IMG/VR virus record: IMGVR_UViG_3300022745_000029
Location: 1 to 64,000 of that record
DNA from: a virus
Length of the DNA stretch: 64,000 bases
Reading direction: 5' to 3' (one strand)
In this document: piece after piece, positions 4,519 to 62,562 of the stretch
Layout of the letters: each line of letters starts with the position of its first letter
How positions within the stretch are numbered: position 1 is the stretch's first letter
Notes under the pieces: generated by a model
Told to the model about the DNA's origin: nothing
Databases searched by the model: none
The model's input: the letters and a program-made list of their open reading frames with translations, nothing else
Program-made: the position numbers and the translations under genes

Positions 4519-4738
4519 CACGCCCTCGCTAGGTAGGTCATACCGTCACACGTGAACGTGGTGTAGTCCTGCCGCAGCTCTTCCGCAGCGGCCTCCCAGT
4601 CGATGTGATTCAGGGGCCAGCGCTGGTCCCGCGGGAGCATGCCGCAGTCGTCGGCAAGCTGCTGGGCGTACTCGGGGAAGTACGTCTCCTTGATGAAGGT
4701 CTCTGGGCACTGGCGCAGGTCTGGTACTCGGGCACGTT
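4518..4738 (-). pseudogene. Out-of-frame C-terminal segment following the methyltransferase
   Basis: In the frame one base away from the methyltransferase, codons from about 4738 to the TGA at 4518 read RQCPETFIKETYFPEYAQQL and then RWPLNHIDWEAAAEELRQDY, ending TCDGMTYLARA. This is clearly protein-like and has no start codon of its own. Its stop overlaps the next gene's start. The W-P-x4-I-D-W...DY...DG-x-TY pattern resembles small phage or plasmid proteins I associate with antirestriction functions, but the assignment is uncertain. It is either fused to the methyltransferase by a frame change or is a leftover of a deletion. Confidence 0.5.
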
Positions 4739-5494
4739 CTCCAGCAGGAACGCGGCGGGGTTGACGCGGTTCAGCACGACGAGGAAGCCGTGGGCGAGGT
4801 GGCCGACCTCGGGGTGGTCCTCCATCTTGGTCAGGCCGTGCTTGGACTTGCCGGCCTTGCTGGCGCCGGAGCAGGGGATACCCGCCACGAGCAGGTCCGC
4901 CCTGGGCATCGAGGCCATGGCCTCGTCGTCCTGGATCAGCTCCTGCAGCGGCGCCGAGTACAGGGCGGTGCCCTTGTCGATGACGGGGTTGTGCTGGCGG
5001 GCATGCTCCAGCAGGTCAGCGTCGATCTCGTTGGCCATGACGGTGTGGGCCTGCACGCCGGCCTGCAGCAGGCCTGCGTGGGCACTGTGGTCCAGCACAC
5101 CGCCACCGAAGCACACGCCGGCGATGGCAAGGCTGGTGGCCACGCCGGCAGCTGCTCGCTTGATGCGCTCGACGGCCTTCTCGTGCGAGGCCAGGTGCGA
5201 GATGGTGATGCGACCGTCGGTCTGCACGACCTTGACCGCTTCGGCCCCGGCAAACGGCGCCAGCAGGACGGCGTTGTTGATGTCGATGACGGGGGTGTCT
5301 TCCTTGCCGGGGACGCTCTTGCCCGACACGATGAACTTGCCGTCGTCGGCAAGTTCCAGTGTGACGCGCTTGGGCGTCGTGGTGATGTTGTAGCGCTTGC
5401 CGCGGGAGAACCCGATGTCGCGCAGGGCGTTGCTCTGGAAGTAGAGGCGGGGCGCGGCGCGATGCCCGCCGACTTTCTTGACGATGTATGTCAT
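4610..5494 (-). CDS. Truncated C5-cytosine DNA methyltransferase-like protein
   Basis: A unique N-terminal region of about 120 residues is followed by a Rossmann-type methyltransferase core. The S-adenosylmethionine-binding motif I is seen as GVCFGGGVLDHSAH, motif IV as AGIPCSGAS with the catalytic Pro-Cys, and motif VI as LLENVPEY. The frame derails just after ENVPEYQTCASAQ into Arg/Ser-rich sequence, so the target-recognition and C-terminal motifs VIII-X are missing. Intact members are much longer. If active it would methylate cytosines and shield phage DNA from restriction, but in this form it is probably inactive. A TTTTGGAGTCC leader precedes the ATG. Confidence 0.7.
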   Translation of the reverse strand: MTYIVKKVGGHRAAPRLYFQSNALRDIGFSRGKRYNITTTPKRVTLELADDGKFIVSGKSVPGKEDTPVIDINNAVLLAPFAGAEAVKVVQTDGRITISHLASHEKAVERIKRAAAGVATSLAIAGVCFGGGVLDHSAHAGLLQAGVQAHTVMANEIDADLLEHARQHNPVIDKGTALYSAPLQELIQDDEAMASMPRADLLVAGIPCSGASKAGKSKHGLTKMEDHPEVGHLAHGFLVVLNRVNPAAFLLENVPEYQTCASAQRPSSRRRTSPSTPSSLPTTAACSRGTSAGP

Positions 5495-13574: not shown

Positions 13575-14059
13575 TTCACACCGCCTTCCGCGCCACAGTC
13601 CATCGCGTCGTCATCCCACTCGCTGGCCAACTTCTTGATCGTGCTGTCGTAGCCCGAGGCGAACGCCTCCAGCACGGGCAGGAGGAAGTCGCCGGCGTGC
13701 TTGATCGACAGCTCGGCGATCAGGGCCTTGGCGGTGATGCCGTAGCGGCGGTACAGGCTCGGGACGATGGCGGCAAATGGGGCGTACTCGCCGCGCAGCT
13801 CGCGCAGGTCGGGGTCGATGACTTCGAGGTGGGCGCGGACGGGCGTCCTGCCGTTCTGGCCAGGCTGCCCCAGTTCCAGATCGAGCTCGACGATGTTCCC
13901 ATTGGCCATGCGGAATTCGAGTTCGACGACGCGCCGGGGCTTGATCTGTGCGGCGGAGTTGAAGAGCTCAAGGATTGAGAAGTGCGCGGTGGTCTCCACC
14001 GGCGTTGACGTTGTCGGGGCGCGCACAGAGACGAGCACACCGTGCAAGGGTGATTCCAT
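13571..14059 (-). CDS. Unknown protein (162 aa)
   Basis: The start MESPLHGVLVSVRAP follows TTGGAGTCCAACATG. The residues TTSTP at 16-20 are encoded by a copy of the 14-bp repeat (14006-14019), suggesting the site is tolerated in the coding sequence. The middle is beta-rich (RVVELEFRMANGNIVELDLE) and the end helical with an acidic tail. Function is unknown. Confidence 0.65.
   Translation of the reverse strand: MESPLHGVLVSVRAPTTSTPVETTAHFSILELFNSAAQIKPRRVVELEFRMANGNIVELDLELGQPGQNGRTPVRAHLEVIDPDLRELRGEYAPFAAIVPSLYRRYGITAKALIAELSIKHAGDFLLPVLEAFASGYDSTIKKLASEWDDDAMDCGAEGGVK
14006..14019 (+). repeat. 14-bp repeat copy
   Basis: In the 162-aa gene near its N-terminus, read in a different frame (TTSTP). 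Confidence 0.8.
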
Positions 14060-14096
14060 GTTGGACTCCAAAGTTGTGGGGCAAGGTGCCCCGGGG
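14060..14096 (-). promoter_or_regulatory. Hairpin/RBS leader
   Basis: A perfect stem GGGGCA-CCT-TGCCCC (14092-14078) begins right after the upstream TAA and is followed by TTTGGAGTCCAACATG. Confidence 0.65.
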
Positions 14097-14576: not shown

Positions 14577-15071
14577 GTTGGACTCCAAAGTGGTGGGCAA
14601 GGTGCAGCAAAGCGCTGCGGAAGTGGCTCAAGTGAGCCGGGAACGGGAGTGTAGACGTTGTCGGGGCGGTGCCGTTGACGTTGTCGGGGCAAGCTCGAAA
14701 GTGCATAAAAGCCTTGCGGGACAAGCACTTACAGAATTGGGCACCCCTAGACCTACGTTTTACAGGGGAAACGAGGTAAGTGCCCTTTTCTTTCAAAAGT
14801 CATTTCACATTATGAAATCACTTTTGAAAAAATACCTGAATCATTAAAAAAAAAACAGTCTTCATTTTTGAACCCTCTAAATCTTCAAGCACTTGTCAGG
14901 CAACAGAAATTTGGCACTTGACTAAAAAGGGTCGAGTACTACAAATTTCCAAGGGGTACTACTTTTTTGAGCAAGATTCTTGCTTTACAATCGTCATAAA
15001 TAGTGCTCACTCACTTTAAAAATGATAGCAAAACACCGTTTCGGCAAGAATCGTGCCAGCTTGAGTAGGGC
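14577..15071. other. AT-rich non-coding region between leftward genes
   Basis: No convincing gene is seen. The first 40 bases are a leader copy with a weak stem. Two copies of the 14-bp repeat lie at 14653 and 14676. From about 14790 the sequence is far more AT-rich than the genome, with runs of A and T. Two direct repeats, GAGTACTAC (14934-14942) and GGGTACTAC (14954-14962), are 20 bp apart, about two helical turns, and could be operator half-sites. Confidence 0.5.
14653..14689 (+). repeat. Two 14-bp repeat copies 23 bp apart
   Basis: AGACGTTGTCGGGG (14653, one mismatch) and the exact form (14676) in the non-coding region. Confidence 0.8.
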
Positions 15072-15239
15072 CTAAGTACCAATCTTCTCCAGGAAGCCCA
15101 TGACAACGGCGCCGACGAGGCTCAGGCCGGCCACTTCGCCAAGCAGTCGAGCTTCTTGCTCGGTGCCAAATACCGCCGCCACCAGGCAGACAGCAGCTTG
15201 TACACCGAGGAAGCTGGTGAAGATGTAGGGCTTGAGCAT
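15072..15239 (-). CDS. Small membrane protein (55 aa)
   Basis: The ATG at 15239 follows CGGAGTTCAATC. The protein begins MLKPYIFTSFLGVQAAVCLV and has two hydrophobic segments (residues about 5-24 and 36-50, LSLVGAVVMGFLEKIG). Small two-helix membrane proteins in this setting often act in exclusion or host modification, but here the role is unknown. Confidence 0.6.
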   Translation of the reverse strand: MLKPYIFTSFLGVQAAVCLVAAVFGTEQEARLLGEVAGLSLVGAVVMGFLEKIGT

Positions 15240-15288
15240 GATTGAACTCCGAAAATGGGCACAAAGCCTTGCACAGCTTGCCCGTTTA

Positions 15289-15305
15289 GCTATCAAAACG
15301 ATAGC
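15289..15305. promoter_or_regulatory. 17-bp palindrome, copy 1
   Basis: GCTATC-AAAAC-GATAGC has perfect 6-bp arms. The second copy at 15593 shares the arms, so both may bind the same dimeric repressor. Confidence 0.45.
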
Positions 15306-15376
15306 GGAATTGGTTTGGAAACGCGGCGGGGCGCTATTCATCAACGGAATAGCGGTGCCAGACCTGGGCCCGTTGT

Positions 15377-15390
15377 CCCCGACAACGTCA
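15377..15390 (-). repeat. 14-bp repeat copy, opposite orientation
   Basis: Read as CCCCGACAACGTCA on the plus strand, in non-coding sequence. Confidence 0.8.
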
Positions 15391-15427
15391 AATGCAGAGC
15401 AAATGTCAACATTCCACATTATGAAAA

Positions 15428-15567
15428 GTTGGACTCCAAAGATGTCTGACGCAAGCGGACAGGCCTTGACCCAGGCCCCGACAACGTCAATGTCCGGGCA
15501 CACTGGGCACGTTGGACTCCAAAGAGAGCTGACGCAAGCGGCCAGCCCCAGGCCCCGACAACGTCAA
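15428..15567. repeat. Tandem duplication containing a leader motif and a 14-bp site
   Basis: Unit A (15428-15490) and unit B (15511-15567) both run GTTGGACTCCAAAGA, CTGACGCAAGCGG, then CCAGGCCCCGACAACGTCAA. Gaps differ by a few bases. No gene follows the leader motifs, so they are orphan copies. Confidence 0.65.
15476..15566 (-). repeat. Two 14-bp repeat copies in the tandem duplication
   Basis: At 15476-15489 and 15553-15566, one in each duplicated unit. Confidence 0.8.
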
Positions 15568-15592
15568 AGCGCCCGTAATTGCTGCGTTTTCA

Positions 15593-15609
15593 GCTATCGT
15601 TTCGATAGC
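15593..15609. promoter_or_regulatory. 17-bp palindrome, copy 2
   Basis: GCTATCG-TTT-CGATAGC has perfect 7-bp arms, 304 bp from copy 1. Confidence 0.45.
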
Positions 15610-15631
15610 AACATCAACGAGCAGTGGGCAA

Positions 15632-15681
15632 TGACGTTGTCGGGGCCCCTGCCAGTGGCAGTGGCAGTGACGTTGTCGGGG
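15632..15681 (+). repeat. Two 14-bp repeat copies
   Basis: At 15632-15645 and 15668-15681, facing the two previous copies across the second 17-bp palindrome. A two-base variant lies at 15791. Confidence 0.8.
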
Positions 15682-15683
15682 CG

Positions 15684-15878
15684 TCAGCCCACCGCCTCGA
15701 AATGGCGCTTGATCCCACAGGCCCCGTCCCACGGGTTTGCCGCCCGGTAGGGCACAGGAGGGTTACCGCCTTGACTGCGGCGCCCAGTGCCCCCGACAAC
15801 GGCACGGACCAGGGGTTTGCGCATGGTGCCGGCGGGTACTCGAACTACGACGCCGCTCGGGGTTTTACGTTTACGCAT
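15684..15878 (-). CDS. Possible small basic protein (64 aa)
   Basis: The frame begins MRKRKTPSGVVVRVPAGTMR and overlaps the upstream stop by eight bases. It is strongly basic. The coding signal is weak because its sequence also carries the imperfect 14-bp repeat at 15791; it may be chance. Confidence 0.3.
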   Translation of the reverse strand: MRKRKTPSGVVVRVPAGTMRKPLVRAVVGGTGRRSQGGNPPVPYRAANPWDGACGIKRHFEAVG

Positions 15879-16119
15879 AGGTCCGCATCCAATTCGATTT
15901 GGAAGTGCGCCCGTCATCGGACGGAATCGAGGCTACGTAAGGACTGGCGTCGTAGACCTGGCGGCCTTGCGGCCCGCGCACAATTCCCCGGCAGCGGTCG
16001 GCTGCGTCGGTCGCCCGCAACAGGCTCTTGTATTCGCGGCCATACCGAGTCAGAACCAGACCGCCGCAAGGTTCGCCGTACCCGTCGTTGACGGGTGTTG
16101 CCCTGTAGACTTGGTACAT
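15871..16119 (-). CDS. Unknown protein (82 aa)
   Basis: It begins MYQVYRATPVNDGYGEPCGG four bases after the previous stop. The rest is polar with YGREYKSLLRATDAADRCRG. A beta-rich N-terminus is likely. Function is unknown. Confidence 0.5.
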   Translation of the reverse strand: MYQVYRATPVNDGYGEPCGGLVLTRYGREYKSLLRATDAADRCRGIVRGPQGRQVYDASPYVASIPSDDGRTSKSNWMRTYA

Positions 16120-16122
16120 GGT

Positions 16123-16326
16123 TCAGCCCCCGATAAAGGCGTGGCTCAGGTCGCTGAACCAGTAGTTGCCGCGGTCGGGCGTTTTGTCGATGGTCCGCGA
16201 AACTTCGGCGTGCAGCGCGGTGCGGAACGCCCGGTGATACGGCTCCAGCACAGGGGCGATATCGACTACACCCAGCGGCTCAGCCAGACGCGAATCGGGG
16301 ATGGGCATGTAAAGCGCATGCTTCAT
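16123..16326 (-). CDS. Small unknown protein (67 aa)
   Basis: It starts MKHALYMPIPDSRLAEPLGV after TTTGGAGTCCAACATG and ends GNYWFSDLSHAFIGG. Function is unknown. Confidence 0.6.
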   Translation of the reverse strand: MKHALYMPIPDSRLAEPLGVVDIAPVLEPYHRAFRTALHAEVSRTIDKTPDRGNYWFSDLSHAFIGG

Positions 16327-16364
16327 GTTGGACTCCAAAGGGATGCCCCAAGGTGGGCGGGTTA
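16327..16364 (-). promoter_or_regulatory. Hairpin/RBS leader
   Basis: A shorter stem CCCA-CCT-TGGG follows the upstream TAA, then TTTGGAGTCCAACATG. Confidence 0.5.
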
Positions 16365-16652
16365 CAGGTCAGCTGGTCTGACCATTAGGGAAGGCACCCA
16401 CTCGTACACCGATTCGAAACCGAATCGAGCGTAGAGTCGGCGCAGTCTTTCGTGGTCGCCGGACTCGGCGACCGCGATAAGCCCGATTCGAACGTGGCCA
16501 CAGTCGCGGACCAGGTCCGCTAGGGCTTGGCTCGCTTGCCCCGGGCCGTAGGAGCGCAGCGAGGTGACAACGACCCCGCCAACGCCTACCAGGTCGGCCA
16601 GGTCACTGACATCGTCGTCAGTAACGATGCGGGTTGCCAGTAGGGCTTTCAT
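16362..16652 (-). CDS. Short GNAT acetyltransferase-like protein (96 aa)
   Basis: The protein begins MKALLATRIVTDDDVSDLAD. The segment GDHERLRRLYARFGFESVYE matches the C-terminal 'LYxRFGF' beta-strand of GNAT N-acetyltransferases, preceded by a helix at SQALADLVRDCG. The usual acetyl-CoA loop (Q/RxxGxG/A) is only weakly seen as SYGPGQASQAL. At 96 residues it is shorter than the family's roughly 140, so it may be a minimal or inactive relative. Confidence 0.5.
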   Translation of the reverse strand: MKALLATRIVTDDDVSDLADLVGVGGVVVTSLRSYGPGQASQALADLVRDCGHVRIGLIAVAESGDHERLRRLYARFGFESVYEWVPSLMVRPADL

Positions 16653-16783
16653 GCTGGAATTCGAATCAAATCGGTTGCAACATACAACTCATGGAAACGG
16701 TCCGTCGGAAAAGTCGGGCATCAGAACCATGGTTCCTCCTGCAATGACTGGGGCTCTGACCATCAGAGCCCCCGTTATTGCAC

Positions 16784-16838
16784 CCCCGACAACGTCAGAG
16801 CATTTCTGCACGACCGCTGGTCGTTGACGTTGTCGGGG
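16784..16838. repeat. Inverted pair of 14-bp repeats
   Basis: CCCCGACAACGTCA at 16784-16797 and TGACGTTGTCGGGG at 16825-16838 face each other across 27 bp, forming a long inverted repeat. Confidence 0.8.
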
Positions 16839-16843
16839 TGCTC

Positions 16844-16953
16844 AGGTTTTAAACCTCTGCGGAAAGCTCCGCAGACAGGCCGGCCGTGCCGGGATTGCAT
16901 AGAACGCGCCCTATGCGAGGGCGTTGGTAATTACGGTTGCCGGCCGGTTTTTG
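16844..16953 (+). terminator. Cluster of hairpins ending in a T-run
   Basis: In order: AGGTTT-T-AAACCT (16844-16856), TCTGCGG-AAAGCT-CCGCAGA (16856-16875), CGCCCT-ATGCG-AGGGCG (16907-16923), and a GGCCGGC/GCCGGCC pairing (16879-16885 with 16939-16945) followed by GGTTTTTG. Read on the plus strand this could terminate transcription or be part of a folded RNA. Confidence 0.35.
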
Positions 16954-17123
16954 TCTACAGCTTTTGACGCCGCCTATCCTCAACGGGTGTACCTATCCCG
17001 GTCATGGCCGGTTCACACGGGCGCCGCAGGTTGGCCCAGGGTTCAAGCCTAGGACTTACGTTTACGGCGCACGGCGTTGGATACTAGACACGCCACCCTT
17101 GTTTCTTTCGAGCGAGGGCGCTG

Positions 17124-17143
17124 CTACGGGTTGTCTCCCGTAG
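17124..17143. other. Perfect 7-bp stem-loop
   Basis: CTACGGG-TTGTCT-CCCGTAG. Confidence 0.4.
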
Positions 17144-17289
17144 GTTTCCCGTCTTTCAGGGGACCCCCGGCTCCCGCGTTTATGGGGCAATGCTATCGCG
17201 CGCTGCTGAGCTGATCGTTCCCCGTCAACGAACTTGTCCACGCCACTGACCTGTCAATCTGCGTTGTTCAGGCGTAGCATGGGGTTCGC

Positions 17290-17303
17290 TGACGTTGTCG
17301 GGG
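17290..17303 (+). repeat. 14-bp repeat copy in the structured region
   Basis: A degenerate copy follows at about 17384. Confidence 0.8.
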
Positions 17304-17429
17304 CCGGGCTTTGCGGTCGGACATTGGTTCAGGCGAAATTAGAGGGATGCGACAACGGGTAGCCCATGGCGGGCCCACAGTAGTTGTCGTTGTCGGGTTT
17401 TTATGGGACGGCGCACACCTTACCCGGCG

Positions 17430-17575
17430 AACCCGTCACGGGTTGCCACGATGAAAATGGGCTAAGCCGACTGCGGCAATTGACCAGGCAAAGCTCCGCC
17501 TTACTTGCGAACCCGTGGGTTGCAAGTGAAAGCGGAAAGAACCTAGGCCAGTCCGTGCAACCCGCTAGGGGTTGC
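17430..17575. repeat. Three related AACCC/GGGTT stem-loops
   Basis: AACCCGT-C-ACGGGTT (17430-17444), CTTGCgAACCC-GT-GGGTTGCAAG (17504-17526, one bulged base) and GCAACCC-GCTAG-GGGTTGC (17557-17575) repeat the same core arms within 150 bp. Confidence 0.45.
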
Positions 17576-17592
17576 GCGTCGGGTTAGTGGGC

Positions 17593-17654
17593 GATGCCAC
17601 TAGATAGAGCACGGTGGATGCTCTATCTGGTGGCATCCGCTTTTGTGCGGATGC
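17593..17654. terminator. Two nested strong inverted repeats beyond the 17664 gene
   Basis: GATGCCAC-T-AGATAGAGCA (17593-17611) pairs with TGCTCTATCT-G-GTGGCATC (17619-17637) around a 7-base loop, giving about 19 bp with one G-T pair. It overlaps GCATCCGC-TTTTGT-GCGGATGC (17633-17654). Both lie just past the stop of the minus-strand gene and could be alternative stems of a terminator or switch. Confidence 0.5.
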
Positions 17655-17663
17655 TGCAGAGGG

Positions 17664-18272
17664 TTAAACAGTTTCGAGGGTCAGCTCCGTGCTGGTGGAC
17701 TTCCGCTCCGCGCTGGTGGACTCCAGCTCCGCGTGGGCGGACTCCAGCTCCGCGTGGGCGGACTCCAGCTCCGTGCTGGTGGACTTCCGCTCCGCGCTGG
17801 TGGACTCCAGCTCCGCGTGGGCGGACTCCAGCTCCGTGCTGGTGGACTCCAGCTCCGTGCTGGTGGACTTCCGCTCCGCGCGGGCGGACTCATAGGCCAA
17901 CCATTGGGCAATGGTCCGCCCCAGTGCGAGACGCTTGCCCTTGGCTGTTGTCCACAATTGGCCAACGTGCTGGAGCATGGCCATGGTAGTGGCCTTATCG
18001 GGGCTTTGGTTATCGGGAATGAAGTAACCGAAAGCCGTCAAGGCTTTGATATCTCCTTTTGTCAGGCTTGCGCGCACATCAGCCAGAAATGGGCGGAATT
18101 GCCCATTAGTCAGGGCTCGAAGATCTGCGCTCATGGCACCGGCCATGCGGGCTGCTTTGGGCGCGAAGGCTTGCGCCGTATGGCTATGGGCAATGAGGGT
18201 TTTACCTGCTTTGTTTGCCCACGTGATAGCGGCATGTTCAGCAGGTGCGTTGGTAGTGATCAGATTTTGCAT
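17664..18272 (-). CDS. Unknown protein with nine C-terminal heptad repeats (202 aa)
   Basis: The first 130 residues begin MQNLITTNAPAEHAAITWAN and include LRALTNGQFRPFLADVRASL; they look globular and helical, with no family recognised. The last 70 residues are nine units of seven: KSTSTEL, ESTSTEL, ESAHAEL, ESTSAER and repeats of these. Each unit is 21 bp (17682-17870). Leu or Arg at a fixed heptad position suggests an extended coiled coil. The units are nearly identical in DNA, so copy number can change by slippage. The gene stands alone, divergent from the structural block, and might encode a regulator or a host-interaction protein. Confidence 0.7.
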   Translation of the reverse strand: MQNLITTNAPAEHAAITWANKAGKTLIAHSHTAQAFAPKAARMAGAMSADLRALTNGQFRPFLADVRASLTKGDIKALTAFGYFIPDNQSPDKATTMAMLQHVGQLWTTAKGKRLALGRTIAQWLAYESARAERKSTSTELESTSTELESAHAELESTSAERKSTSTELESAHAELESAHAELESTSAERKSTSTELTLETV

Positions 18273-18309
18273 GGTGAAATTTTCCTAATGATTGCCCATG
18301 TTACTGCCA

Positions 18310-18326
18310 TGCACCAAAATGGTGCA
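18310..18326. promoter_or_regulatory. Palindrome in the divergent intergenic region
   Basis: TGCACCA-AAA-TGGTGCA has perfect 7-bp arms, between the divergent genes starting at 18272 and 18541. It is a good candidate operator. Confidence 0.45.
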
Positions 18327-18504
18327 CAGTATGCGCGCGCCCAGGGCGCTCGCAGTGTGGAGGATGAGGATCAGTAACATGAGCGATAGTGTGCCACAGC
18401 TATAATAACCAAGTAAACCATAGGGATATAACTCCATGACGTATAGGGTTTTTATGGCGCGGGATGGCCGAGGCCCGTCCCAGCTCCCTTTTTAGCGGCG
18501 GAAA

Positions 18505-18534
18505 TTTTTCAAAACTTTTTAGTCGTGCTATACT
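18505..18534 (+). promoter_or_regulatory. Promoter with TATACT box, leaderless start
   Basis: TATACT (18529-18534) ends 6 bases before the ATG at 18541; the -35 region TTTTTC (18505-18510) with an 18-base spacer is weak. No Shine-Dalgarno sequence precedes the ATG. Confidence 0.5.
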
Positions 18535-18540
18535 ACTGCC

Positions 18541-19014
18541 ATGAAAAAAGACATTCTGAAAGCCGCCGTAGAGCAAGTCATATCCGGCGCCAAGTCTTCG
18601 TACCAAGCCAGCAAGGACACGGGGATACCCCCGGCGACCCTATCCCGAGCTGTGCGGCTCCACCCCGACTACGAAAAGGCCAAGGCTGACGGCCGGCTGA
18701 GGTCGATGCGCTCCGATCTGGTACCGCTGGACCCCGTAAAACTGCGTCAAATGCCGGAGTTGCAGGCCATCGTGGCGGAGTCCCTGAGCTACAACGAGGC
18801 TGCCCGGCGGTTCGGGAGCGAGGCCTCCAAGTGGCGCCGGTACACGATGGTCGCCTACCCCGACTACGCCAAGGCCCGCGAGAAGCCCAAGCGCCAGGAC
18901 CCCGCCCAACAGGCCCTTGAAGACCGCCTGCGCGCCCTGGAAGAGGAGCTCCTTGCCCTCAAAATTCGCTCCGAAGAGGCCAAAAAAGCCCAAAATTCGA
19001 GCGAAAATCAGTGA
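18541..19014 (+). CDS. Double helix-turn-helix DNA-binding protein (157 aa)
   Basis: Two helix-turn-helix-like segments are visible: residues about 14-40 (SGAKSSYQASKDTGIPPATL) and about 77-98 (SYNEAARRFGSEASKWRRYT). A C-terminal coiled coil (LEDRLRALEEELLALKIRSE) could dimerise it. It is the first rightward gene and the product of a probable leaderless transcript. It may be a regulator of the structural block or a phage repressor or activator; a terminase small subunit role is possible but less likely because a better candidate sits at 19726. Confidence 0.6.
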   Translation: MKKDILKAAVEQVISGAKSSYQASKDTGIPPATLSRAVRLHPDYEKAKADGRLRSMRSDLVPLDPVKLRQMPELQAIVAESLSYNEAARRFGSEASKWRRYTMVAYPDYAKAREKPKRQDPAQQALEDRLRALEEELLALKIRSEEAKKAQNSSENQ

Positions 19015-48400: not shown

Positions 48401-49543
48401 ATGGCCACCAATATCCAACCCCGAGGCAGTCGATTTCAGCTGCGGGTGATCCACCCCCTGCTGCCCAAACCGCACTTTGCCACCTTCGAGTCCGAGCCAG
48501 AGGCGCGCGGCTACCGCGACCAGCTGATGGCGCTGCTGCAGCGCGGGGAGGTGCCGGCCAACCTGCTTGAGCCGGCGGCGCCTGACGGCAGTCCGCTGCT
48601 CACGAGCGTGGTGGACGACTACAAGCGGCTGTCCACGCCCAGCCCGTCTGACCTTGACATGCTGCACCTGGTGCACGCCGACGTGGAGCGCCTGGGCATG
48701 CGGCAGCTGGACTACGAGTGGGCCGAGAAGTACGTGCGACGCCTGAAAGTGGAGCAGAACCTGTCCCCGGGCTCCGTCAGAAAGCGCGTGGGCGTGCTGG
48801 CGCGCGCGGTCGACTGGTGGATCCGGCGCAACCACAAGCAGGGCACGGCGGCGGCTACCAACCCGCTACGCCTGCTGCCCAAGGGCTACAGCGTCTACAC
48901 GGCGGCCGAGGCGGCGGCCGTGGCTAAGAAGGGCGGCAAAGTTAAAAAGGACCGGGAGGTGGACCGCCGCCTGCTGCCCGAGGAAGAGGCCCGCGTGCGC
49001 GAGGCGCTGGCCGGCGTCAAGCGGCCCGACCGCGAGCGCGCTCTGGGCACCGACAAGTTCTTCATCAAGCTGTTCGAGCTGATCCTGGGCACCGGTATCC
49101 GCCTGAAGGAGGCCTACACCCTGCGCGCCGACCAGGTGGACCTTGCCAAGGGCGTGCTGCGGCTGTCCGGCTCCAAGGGCTGGCGGGGTGCGTCCAAGCC
49201 CCGCGTGGTGCCGCTGACCCCGGCGCTGCGCAGGGAGCTGAAGGACTTGCCAGAAGGGCTGGTGTTCCCGTACTGGGACGGGACGAAAGAAGGGGAGAAG
49301 AAGGCGACGTCGAAGCTGTCCGTCCGCTTCGGGACGTTGTTCGACTACGCGCAGGTCCCAGACATCACGGAACACGTGCTGCGCCACGAGGCGACATGCC
49401 GGTGGTTCGAGATGCGGGATGCGAAAGGGCGGTGGACGTTCTCGGAGATCGAGATCTGTCGAATCATGGGGTGGTCCTCCACCCGGATGGCGCTTCGATA
49501 CGCCTCTCTCCGGGGGGAGGACCTGTCGTCACGACTGGGGTGA
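48401..49543 (+). CDS. int: Tyrosine integrase
   Basis: It catalyses recombination between attP and the host tRNA-Cys gene. The 380-residue protein has a core-binding N-terminal half (DDYKRLSTPSPSDLDMLHLV), then the catalytic domain with R234 in GTGIRLKEAY, K259 in LSGSKGW, H325-x2-R328 in HVLRHE, W358 in MGWSS and nucleophile Y367 in MALRYASLRG. All family residues are present. The gene begins 150 bp from attP. There is no ribosome-binding site; the promoter implies a leaderless mRNA. Confidence 0.92.
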   Translation: MATNIQPRGSRFQLRVIHPLLPKPHFATFESEPEARGYRDQLMALLQRGEVPANLLEPAAPDGSPLLTSVVDDYKRLSTPSPSDLDMLHLVHADVERLGMRQLDYEWAEKYVRRLKVEQNLSPGSVRKRVGVLARAVDWWIRRNHKQGTAAATNPLRLLPKGYSVYTAAEAAAVAKKGGKVKKDREVDRRLLPEEEARVREALAGVKRPDRERALGTDKFFIKLFELILGTGIRLKEAYTLRADQVDLAKGVLRLSGSKGWRGASKPRVVPLTPALRRELKDLPEGLVFPYWDGTKEGEKKATSKLSVRFGTLFDYAQVPDITEHVLRHEATCRWFEMRDAKGRWTFSEIEICRIMGWSSTRMALRYASLRGEDLSSRLG

Positions 49544-49834
49544 GACCTTGACCGTGCGGGTGAAGTCCGCACGCCGCGGCATCGGGGCTCGTCCGAGGGA
49601 GCCCATGAAGCGGAAGTGCCCCGCCGTGACTTCCTGGCTGCGCCCTTCCTCCGGGCTAGGCTTCAAATTTGCCAGCGCCTGCTCTTCGAGCACCTTCATC
49701 AGGGCCGCGTACGGCACCCTCGGCGACCGGCCGTACCGCACGGACGGCAACTTGCCCGCCCTCACGGCGTCGGCCACCGTATCCTCGGAGCAGTCCAGCA
49801 GCTCCGCCACCTGCGCAAGGTTGAGCACGCTCAT
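49529..49834 (-). CDS. Excisionase/MerR-like HTH protein (101 aa)
   Basis: The N-terminal 55 residues are a winged helix: NLAQVAELLDCSEDTVADAV and AGKLPSVRYGRSPRVPYAAL, as in excisionases and small DNA-binding regulators. A basic tail follows. It converges on integrase with a 15-base overlap of the 3' ends. A recombination directionality role is likely. Confidence 0.7.
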   Translation of the reverse strand: MSVLNLAQVAELLDCSEDTVADAVRAGKLPSVRYGRSPRVPYAALMKVLEEQALANLKPSPEEGRSQEVTAGHFRFMGSLGRAPMPRRADFTRTVKVSPQS

Positions 49835-50058
49835 TTCAGCAGGCCCTCCTCACGCATTGCCCGCCGCACGTCACCGCGGAAGTTGGTGATGGCTCGCTGG
49901 TCGCTGGCGGTCAGCGCTGCGATGAACGCGCGCTGCACGCTGCGCCCGAAGTCGACCACCACCTTGAGGTGGTTGCCGCCGGTTTGGGTGATGCCCACGA
50001 CCTTGAGGCCCTCGGCCTCAACAACGCGGGCCAAGTCGCGCTTGGCCCGCAATGTCAT
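49831..50058 (-). CDS. Small unknown protein (75 aa)
   Basis: It has the pattern AEGLKVVGITQTGGNHLKVV, reminiscent of a small double-stranded RNA-binding-like (HicA-type) fold, then RAITNFRGDVRRAMREEGLL. The match is weak. It overlaps both neighbours by four bases. Confidence 0.55.
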   Translation of the reverse strand: MTLRAKRDLARVVEAEGLKVVGITQTGGNHLKVVVDFGRSVQRAFIAALTASDQRAITNFRGDVRRAMREEGLLK

Positions 50059-61404: not shown

Positions 61405-61633
61405 TGGCTTCTTTCTTGTTGTTCTTGTGGAGCCAGTTGAAGAACCTGCGCACAACGTAACCCCGAGCGATCGAGATGACGGTGAACAGGAGCGTGATCG
61501 TGAGGTTCTCGGCGAAGTTGGTCTGGATGTGCCAGACCGGCTTGACGATGAACTCCCATGTGAGAAGGCTCAGGACGAAGCCCGAGCCGGTGTTGAGCAG
61601 CTGCTCGATGAGTGAGCCCAGACGTGACTGCAT
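61367..61633 (-). CDS. Membrane protein (88 aa)
   Basis: Two hydrophobic segments (GSGFVLSLLTWEFIVKPVWH and LTITLLFTVISIARGYVV) with a basic end FNWLHKNNKKE. Similar small proteins of unknown function occur in phage replication modules. It overlaps the DUF5664 gene by 38 bases. Confidence 0.65.
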   Translation of the reverse strand: MQSRLGSLIEQLLNTGSGFVLSLLTWEFIVKPVWHIQTNFAENLTITLLFTVISIARGYVVRRFFNWLHKNNKKEANEHTSESAASAG

Positions 61634-62562
61634 CAGATGACCCCCTCACGAAGGTCCTGCAGGGCGCGGGCCCAGCGTTGGCGGGTCTCCGGCTTCTTGC
61701 CCATGCGGGGGTAGCGGATGGCGTCGCCAAGGTGCCGGCGGAATTTCATGTTGTCCAGCACGGTGGGCACCAGCATCTGGTACACGTCGTGCAGGGGGGT
61801 CTCCGAGGTCTCCTCCGCCGTGAGGTACTCGGTGGCCTCGTCCAGCCGGGCCAGGCGCTGCATGGCGCCTTCTATCTGCTGCGCCACGGACACGGTGTAG
61901 CTGCCCACGGCGCTGGCTGCCCAGGCGTAGAAGGGGTCCAGCAGGTTGCGCACCGCCCACGCCAGGGGGTTGCGCAGGCGCTGCTCGGGCTGGGTCAGGT
62001 AGGCGTCCCAGTCGTAGCGCGGTGCCGGCGCTTTCACAAGCTGCTGCCGTGCGTTGCTCCAGACGGAGTCGGTGTTGAAGGCCATCACCCAGTCAAGGGT
62101 GTCGAGCACGACGCCGCCGCTGTCGTGGACGGGGCGGCGCTCGGTGTGGTGCAGGGCCATGGCGATGAACTGGGCGGCGGTGACCTGCCACATCTGTGAG
62201 GAGCGCATGGAGCGCCCGGAGACCCGCATCCAGGCTTCGCGCTGGCCCTGCTCCATGTAGGGCAGCAGGGCGCGCTCGCCTCCGCGCTCGCCCCGCACCA
62301 CACCCTCCACGAAGCACTCGTAGAGGTGGGCCAGGATGTCGGTGTCGGCCTGCAGGTGGGGGACCGCCCACTCGTAGACGGCGCCAGCTTTGCTGGCGTC
62401 GAAGACGTTGTAGCCGGGCAGGGACACGGGGTGGTACGCTTCGGGGTTGTCTGCAGCCCACCGGGCCTCTTCCTGAACCTCCTCCAGGAGGCCCGCCCTG
62501 TGCAGGCGGGACAGGAGGAGGTTCAGGGCCCGGGAAGACGCGTCGGGGTTAGCCAGCCGCAT
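61633..62562 (-). CDS. Unknown protein (309 aa)
   Basis: Predominantly helical, beginning MRLANPDASSRALNLLLSRL and with AAQFIAMALHHTERRPVHDS and VLDTLDWVMAFNTDSVWSNA. The protein has no clear motif, signal peptide or membrane helix. It overlaps its neighbours by 1 and 14 bases, in the middle of the DNA-metabolism operon. Confidence 0.65.
   Translation of the reverse strand: MRLANPDASSRALNLLLSRLHRAGLLEEVQEEARWAADNPEAYHPVSLPGYNVFDASKAGAVYEWAVPHLQADTDILAHLYECFVEGVVRGERGGERALLPYMEQGQREAWMRVSGRSMRSSQMWQVTAAQFIAMALHHTERRPVHDSGGVVLDTLDWVMAFNTDSVWSNARQQLVKAPAPRYDWDAYLTQPEQRLRNPLAWAVRNLLDPFYAWAASAVGSYTVSVAQQIEGAMQRLARLDEATEYLTAEETSETPLHDVYQMLVPTVLDNMKFRRHLGDAIRYPRMGKKPETRQRWARALQDLREGVI

What the first reader, a model, noticed from the sequence alone, without database searches (positions are those of the whole stretch)
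14790..17654. Non-coding hub with two operator-like palindromes, direct repeats and stacked hairpins
The region has the 17-bp palindromes GCTATC-N5-GATAGC (15289, 15593), GTACTAC direct repeats 20 bp apart (14935, 14955), an inverted pair of 14-bp sites (16784/16825), three AACCC/GGGTT stem-loops (17430-17575) and a 19-bp stem overlapping an 8-bp stem (17593-17654). It lies between opposing or independent transcription units. It may be the immunity/control region, a replication origin, or encode a structured RNA.
Basis: partly seen in the sequence, partly recalled or inferred. Interest (0 to 1): 0.6.

Follow-up and report, generated by a model that had tools for sequence, protein, structure and literature searches.

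The report
Putative phage origin with dispersed sites

Summary
The listed features are real, but the main one was missed. The "14-bp sites" belong to a dispersed directional motif, TGACGTTGTCGGGG (core CGTTGTCGGGG): 18 core copies in this 71-kb phage, 13-30 in near-complete relatives that carry it, 0 for the reversed control. It reshapes coding sequence, sits in a 6-bp-periodic GNC pattern and is densest here. The lowest-GC spot of the genome (14786-15035) lies in the interval, flanked by inward-pointing copies; three relatives share this layout (60 of 76 copies point to it). I read this as a likely replication origin with initiator-type sites; stoperator-like operators are the main rival. Just to the right lies the likely immunity switch: a tandem-HTH gene (18541-19014), whose G011 homolog carries an S24 (LexA/CI-type) domain, and an operator palindrome (18310) shared by three phages. 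The ~1-kb non-coding block 16653-17663 holds a structured element conserved, with compensatory stem changes, in one relative. No binding protein, replication start or RNA is shown.

The parts
14786..15035 (.). AT-rich element (GC 0.32), lowest-GC 250-bp window of the genome; candidate unwinding region
   Evidence: shares 17 9-mers with the equivalent G001 segment vs 1.8 expected
14788..14832 (.). 20-nt-arm palindrome centred on TTTCACATTATGAAA (14803-14817); the same 15-mer is in G001; a near copy lies at 15412
14936..14962 (+). GTACTAC direct repeats inside the AT-rich element; one within the 12-mer GAGTACTACAAA shared with G004
   Evidence: overall G000/G004 sharing is borderline
14006..14019 (+). 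motif copy pointing toward the AT-rich element (inside a coding gene)
14653..14666 (+). motif copy, pointing inward
14676..14689 (+). motif copy, pointing inward
15377..15390 (-). motif copy, pointing inward
15476..15489 (-). motif copy, pointing inward
15553..15566 (-). motif copy, pointing inward
15632..15681 (+). two motif copies pointing outward, within a run of nine GNC hexads
15791..15804 (-). motif copy (1 mismatch)
15289..15305 (.). palindrome GCTATC-N5-GATAGC upstream of gene 15072-15239
15593..15609 (.). palindrome GCTATC-N5-GATAGC; the same half-sites occur in the hairpin after gene 31 in G001 and G023
16740..16782 (+). hairpin, 20-nt arms, just before the inverted motif pair
16784..16838 (.). 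inverted motif pair (perfect 14-bp arms, 27-nt loop); G001, found by direct repeats, also has such a pair, and four further contigs were found by it
16835..16932 (+). 98-nt element conserved in G001: GGTTTTAAACC, a stem replaced on both sides around the loop AAAGC, CATAG/CTATG vs CACAG/CTGTG, possible pseudoknot
17290..17303 (+). motif copy inside the non-coding block
17430..17578 (+). three AACCC/GGGTT stem-loops
17593..17654 (-). two hairpins sharing 5-6 nt, 3' of gene 31; same arrangement with unrelated sequence in four relatives
17664..18272 (-). gene 31: first gene of the leftward early block, position conserved, fast-evolving, C-terminal coiled coil
18310..18326 (.). operator-like palindrome TGCACCA-AAA-TGGTGCA, arms conserved in G012 and G004 at the same place
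18541..19014 (+). gene 32: tandem-HTH protein, candidate repressor; G011 homolog has an S24 peptidase domain
48401..49543 (+). tyrosine integrase (temperate lifestyle)
61633..62562 (-). gene 86: candidate motif binder; family present in all five near-complete motif-bearing phages, not found in G013 or UAntarctica

Best explanation
The interval is the control hub at the head of a ~40-kb leftward early block in a temperate-type phage. Its centre, 14.65-15.57 kb, is most likely a replication origin: an AT-rich segment with a central palindrome, flanked on both sides by several copies of a directional site (consensus GNCNNNGNCNTTGACGTTGTCGGGG) whose GGGG ends face it. Inferred mechanism: a phage-encoded protein, possibly gene 86, binds these sites in register along 6-bp steps, assembles from both sides, and opens the AT-rich segment for the phage's own replication proteins (family A polymerase, helicase-like genes). 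Scattered copies elsewhere point to the same spot and may organise or titrate that protein. Shown: the sites, their excess, the 6-bp period, selection in coding DNA, the inward layout in four phages. Inferred: protein identity, replication function, role of the distant copies.
For: Motif excess: 18 core copies here, 30 in G001, 13 in G005, 14 in G011, 16 in G012; reversed control 0. Nucleotide-level selection in genes: 20 coding copies in G001 vs 1.8 (max 5) in synonymous shuffles; 11 of 13 PDN tripeptides there are encoded exactly by CCCCGACAACG. 6-bp GNC period upstream of 52 intergenic copies: 255 vs 157 +/- 10, z 9.8; other phases 117-183. Lowest-GC window of the genome is intergenic and flanked by inward copies in G000 (3|3 nearest), G001 (3|3), G004 (3|3), G012 (2|2); in these four, 60 of 76 copies point inward, p 4e-7. 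TTTCACATTATGAAA is identical in G000 and G001 inside that window. The nearest copies on the gene-31 side run with local transcription in all four phages, against a transcription-polarity rule. Gene 86 presence follows the motif.
Against: No replication start, binding or transcription data. G011 has 14 copies but no such flanked AT-rich window, and G005 is ambiguous. AT-rich DNA with flanking sites could also be a promoter with operators. Copies far from the hub are not needed for an origin. GC skew does not mark an origin: it follows gene direction. Orientation toward the hub is partly confounded with transcription direction and with which reading frames proteins tolerate. Gene 86 has no recognisable DNA-binding domain, a low-confidence model (pLDDT 60), and only two genomes support its absence, one of them distant.
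Confidence: 0.45

Rival explanations
1. Stoperator-like sites: the motif is an asymmetric operator bound by a phage repressor (for example the tandem-HTH gene 32), which blocks initiation at the hub and elongation along the early block in the prophage state.
For: 13-14 bp, no dyad, 13-30 copies, mostly in the early half, 47 of 57 coding copies antisense to the gene, some enrichment near gene starts (13 vs 6.6 within 60 nt, p 0.007). Published stoperators: 13-14 bp, 20-30 copies, oriented with transcription, bound by a monomer with two DNA-binding domains (PMC6550527, PMC9283540). Gene 32 has two HTHs and an S24-fused homolog.
Against: Intergenic copies show no clear polarity to transcription (27 anti, 18 same), and the copies next to the AT-rich element on the gene-31 side run the 'wrong' way in four phages. 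The core is nearly identical between phages while gene 32 recognition helices differ widely (by inspection).
Confidence: 0.27
2. RNA-level element: the sense transcript carries CCCCGACAACGUCA, read by an RNA-binding protein or by base pairing with a structured non-coding RNA from the hub.
For: Coding copies mostly place CCCCGACAACG in the mRNA; the hub contains a conserved structured element with the complementary motif.
Against: 18 intergenic and 10 coding copies are in the opposite orientation yet keep the core and flanks; GNC is its own reverse complement, which fits duplex DNA.
Confidence: 0.12
3. Segregation, recombination or packaging signal (partition, Chi- or KOPS-like): polar copies pointing to one locus guide a translocase or recombinase.
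For: Copies point to one locus over the whole genome (60:16); terminase and HNH genes are close to the hub.
Against: No ParA/ParB-like protein was noticed among the genes inspected (not searched systematically); the site is far longer than known Chi or KOPS, and clustering at the hub is stronger than such signals show (general knowledge).
Confidence: 0.1

Closest known systems
Stoperators of cluster A mycobacteriophages (L5, Bxb1)
   Same: 13-14 bp asymmetric site, tens of copies scattered in a temperate-phage genome, motif varies slightly between relatives
   Different: Many copies inside genes, 6-bp-periodic extended flanks, mixed polarity to transcription, inward layout around an AT-rich element; no repressor shown to bind
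Replication origins with an AT-rich unwinding element flanked by initiator repeats (archaeal ORB origins, iteron origins)
   Same: AT-rich segment flanked by inverted directional repeats; haloarchaeal ORBs also end in a G-string (PMC4010727)
   Different: No recognisable initiator gene beside it; copies also scattered over the genome; unrelated sequence; an analogy, not homology
Pseudomonas phages UAntarctica, Lana and PMBT3
   Same: UAntarctica has the same gene order: leftward accessory block, ~0.8-kb gap, terminase, tail genes, family A polymerase
   Different: About 28-29% protein identity; UAntarctica (the one examined) shows no annotated integrase and no motif copy
Divergent repressor/early promoter switches with S24 (LexA/CI) repressors
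   Same: HTH gene divergent to the early block, palindromic operator between them, S24 fusion in one relative
   Different: Window gene 32 itself has no S24 domain and its operator binding is untested

Membership tests
Stoperator system | Many short asymmetric sites dispersed in the genome | tested here: met
Stoperator system | Predominantly one orientation relative to transcription | tested here: inconclusive
   coding 47:10, intergenic 27:18; hub-adjacent copies opposite
Stoperator system | Cognate repressor binds the site and stops elongation | not testable with these tools
   candidate gene 32 only
Replication origin | AT-rich unwinding element | tested here: met
   lowest-GC window of the genome
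Replication origin | Initiator-type repeats flanking it, conserved layout | tested here: met
   inward in 4 phages; G011 not, G005 ambiguous
Replication origin | Replication initiates there | not testable with these tools
   no sequencing data; GC skew follows gene direction
Phage immunity switch (CI/LexA type) | HTH repressor gene divergent to early genes | tested here: met
   gene 32, HTH_psq E 1.3e-8
Phage immunity switch (CI/LexA type) | S24 autoprotease domain | tested here: not met
   absent in the window protein; present in the G011 homolog (E 5e-19)
Known structured RNA family (Rfam) | Match above gathering score | tested here: not met

The most novel reading that the evidence does not exclude
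A phage group uses a genome-wide directional DNA code read in 6-bp steps (GNC hexads ending in GTCGGGG) by an undescribed protein, possibly the gene 86 family, that nucleates at an AT-rich origin and organises replication or silencing from it.
Probability: 0.25. Interest if true: 0.75.

Novelty: new variant of a known kind. Interest (0 to 1): 0.55.

Why it matters
If true, this phage group carries a directional, 6-bp-periodic DNA signal strong enough to rewrite amino acids in its genes and to point at one locus. That gives a direct way to find the protein that reads it, and to ask why an origin or operator signal is scattered over a whole genome. It also gives a map (candidate origin, candidate immunity switch, early block) for an uncultured relative of the Lana/UAntarctica phages.

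Tried and rejected
Rfam and tRNA search: nothing. Megablast of 10-30 kb and distant blastn of 14.58-18.3 kb against phages: no match. Literature search for the motif: no paper held more than a 10-base part of it, in unrelated contexts. Bacterial genome hit L010: a coding repeat, not the system. L062: chance match in a Mu-like prophage, no model hit. Covariance model R1: only G000 and G001 score; the rest look like chance. Intrinsic terminators and sigma-70 promoters: not above shuffles in the hub. Structure models of gene 31 and gene 86: too low confidence for a fold search. AACCC/GGGTT hairpins as a conserved family: G013 has a similar triplet but I could not show homology. G013's most enriched word is a coding repeat. 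A purely coding cause of the motif was rejected by the synonymous-shuffle test.
Full report
What the record is. The window is bases 1-64000 of a 71,117-bp virus record, a tailed phage with a tyrosine integrase (48401-49543), family A DNA polymerase, ATP-dependent DNA ligase, C5-cytosine methylase, SbcC/SbcD-like genes and terminase/tail genes. Late genes run rightward from 18.5 to 47.5 kb; early genes run leftward from 18.27 kb through 0 and on from 71 to 49.5 kb if the genome is circular or permuted. It has no close match among 50,697 phage records by DNA; nearest proteins are ~28-29% identical, in Pseudomonas phages UAntarctica, Lana and PMBT3 and Vibrio phages. Relatives were fetched from IMG/VR by motif pairs and by terminase and portal profiles: G001 84 kb, G005 76 kb, G011 74 kb, G012 85 kb, G013 81 kb, and fragments G002, G003, G004, G006, G023. 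G003 is a near duplicate of G005 and was left out of totals. Gene calls are my own heuristic and gene starts are approximate.

The observation. The main point was missed: the inverted pair at 16784/16825 is two of 15 exact copies of TGACGTTGTCGGGG and of 18 copies of the core CGTTGTCGGGG, against 0 for the reversed control. Nine of the 18 core copies lie in a single 2-kb window starting at 13801.

The motif is under selection as nucleotide sequence. In G001 there are 20 coding copies against a mean of 1.8 (maximum 5) after synonymous shuffling; PDN tripeptides number 13 against 2.4 expected, and 11 are encoded by exactly CCCCGACAACG. G000 has 6 vs 1.6 and G005 8 vs 1.0. The motif-pair scan of 2.9 million viral contigs returned only six contigs: four were also found by the terminase profile, a fifth (G006) shares the terminase region, and the sixth (G003) duplicates part of G005. 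G013 has no core copy and neither has UAntarctica. G004 uses mainly a variant, CGTTGACGGGG (8 copies vs 0.02 expected).

The motif is longer than it looks. Around intergenic copies, G at -14, -8, -2 and C at -12, -6, 0 are enriched, i.e. GNC every 6 bp. The count for 52 intergenic copies is 255 against 157 +/- 10, z 9.8, and the other five phases give 117-183. Runs of 7 or more GNC units occur in G000, G001, G005 and G011, several overlapping motif copies, with 33 units in the G005 hub. Codon structure gives a 3-bp, not a 6-bp, period, and GNC is its own reverse complement, which favours duplex DNA. I do not know what reads it.

The AT-rich centre. The lowest-GC 250-bp window of the whole genome is 14786-15035 (GC 0.32). 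The nearest motif copies on the left (14009, 14656, 14679) are on + and on the right (15377, 15476, 15553) on -, all with the GGGG end toward it. G001 shows the same: lowest-GC window 49776-50025, +++ and ---, and the identical TTTCACATTATGAAA; G004 +++ and ---; G012 ++ and --. In these four, 60 of 76 copies point to that window (p 4e-7), although the copies are not fully independent. G011 does not fit and G005 is ambiguous. G000 and G001 share 17 9-mers in this segment against 1.8 expected; G000/G004 sharing is borderline.

Origin or stoperators. Published stoperators are 13-14 bp asymmetric sites, 20-30 per genome, oriented with transcription, bound by a repressor with two DNA-binding domains (PMC6550527, PMC9283540). 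The copy number, length and coding-strand bias (47:10) fit. But polarity in coding DNA may reflect which frames proteins tolerate, intergenic copies are 27:18, and in all four phages the copies just on the gene-31 side of the AT-rich window run with transcription. Polarity toward the AT-rich window explains these better. Archaeal origins have an AT-rich region flanked by inverted ORBs, with a G-string in haloarchaea (PMC4010727); this is an analogy, not homology. GC skew follows gene direction and is uninformative.

Candidate reader proteins. Of the protein families I compared, only gene 86 (61633-62562) was found in all five near-complete motif-bearing phages and in neither G013 nor UAntarctica. 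The correlation rests on two negatives. Its fold model is poor and it has no Pfam or PHROG match.

The immunity switch. Gene 32 (18541-19014), divergent to the early block, has an HTH_psq domain (E 1.3e-8) and a second HTH-like region by inspection; its homolog in G011 (BLASTP E 2e-7 over 80 residues, same position) carries a Peptidase_S24 domain (E 5e-19) as in LexA/CI repressors. Between gene 32 and gene 31 lies TGCACCA-AAA-TGGTGCA (18310), with the same arms and different spacers in G012 and G004. In G011 gene 31 is flanked by two CTGTCTTGCAAGACAG sites of the LexA form CTGT-N8-ACAG. Other relatives have other palindromes there, as expected of immunity specificities. That gene 32 is the repressor is an inference.

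The non-coding block 16653-17663. A ~0.75-1.2-kb gap 3' of gene 31 occurs in five phages and folds better than coding controls (mean z -1.3 to -2.5 by region and strand, -0.35 in controls). Window 16770-16975 aligns to G001 at 68% (E 5e-16) although gene 31 has no BLAST match between the two. In it TCTGCGGAAAGCTCCGCAGA becomes CGTCTCAAAGCGAGACG (stem replaced, loop kept; the register differs by one) and CATAG/CTATG becomes CACAG/CTGTG. This is two sequences only. Wobble counts weakly favour the + strand (29 vs 19). After the gene 31 stop codon, two hairpins share 5-6 nt in all five phages with the gap; G012, without it, has a classic terminator.

Verdict. The region is a real control hub. Best reading: candidate origin at 14.65-15.57 kb (0.45), with stoperator-like control as main rival (0.27). 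Nothing here has been tested in the laboratory.

Noticed in passing
14060-14073, 14577-14590, 15428-15441, 15511-15524, 16327-16340 (-) and others: A palindromic leader CTTTGGAGTCCAAC, containing the ribosome-binding GGAG, sits directly before ATG of many leftward genes here and in G012 and G013; it could be a translational or DNA control element.
   Followed up: partly
L007 (G004) 6142, 7088, 7591, 10277, 11075, 11500, 12031, 13242: A second dispersed palindrome, TCCCCACGTGGGGA, 8 copies in 14.8 kb, several just before genes; G012 has CGTTAC-N2-GTAACG in 6 places.
   Followed up: partly
18273-18540 and equivalents: The divergent region carries a TATACGTCA/TACCCGTCA-like string in most relatives (by eye); it could be a promoter or packaging (cos) feature.
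   Followed up: no
G005 (L016) 1681-1878: 33 consecutive GNC hexads, largely GACCTG repeats, with motif cores inside.
   Followed up: no
17664-17900: Gene 31 ends in a tandem-repeat coiled coil (STELESAHAELESTSAERK), variable between phages.
   Followed up: no
4610-5494: C5-cytosine methylase gene; the window copy is 294 aa, its G001 homolog 464 aa, so it may be truncated.
   Followed up: no
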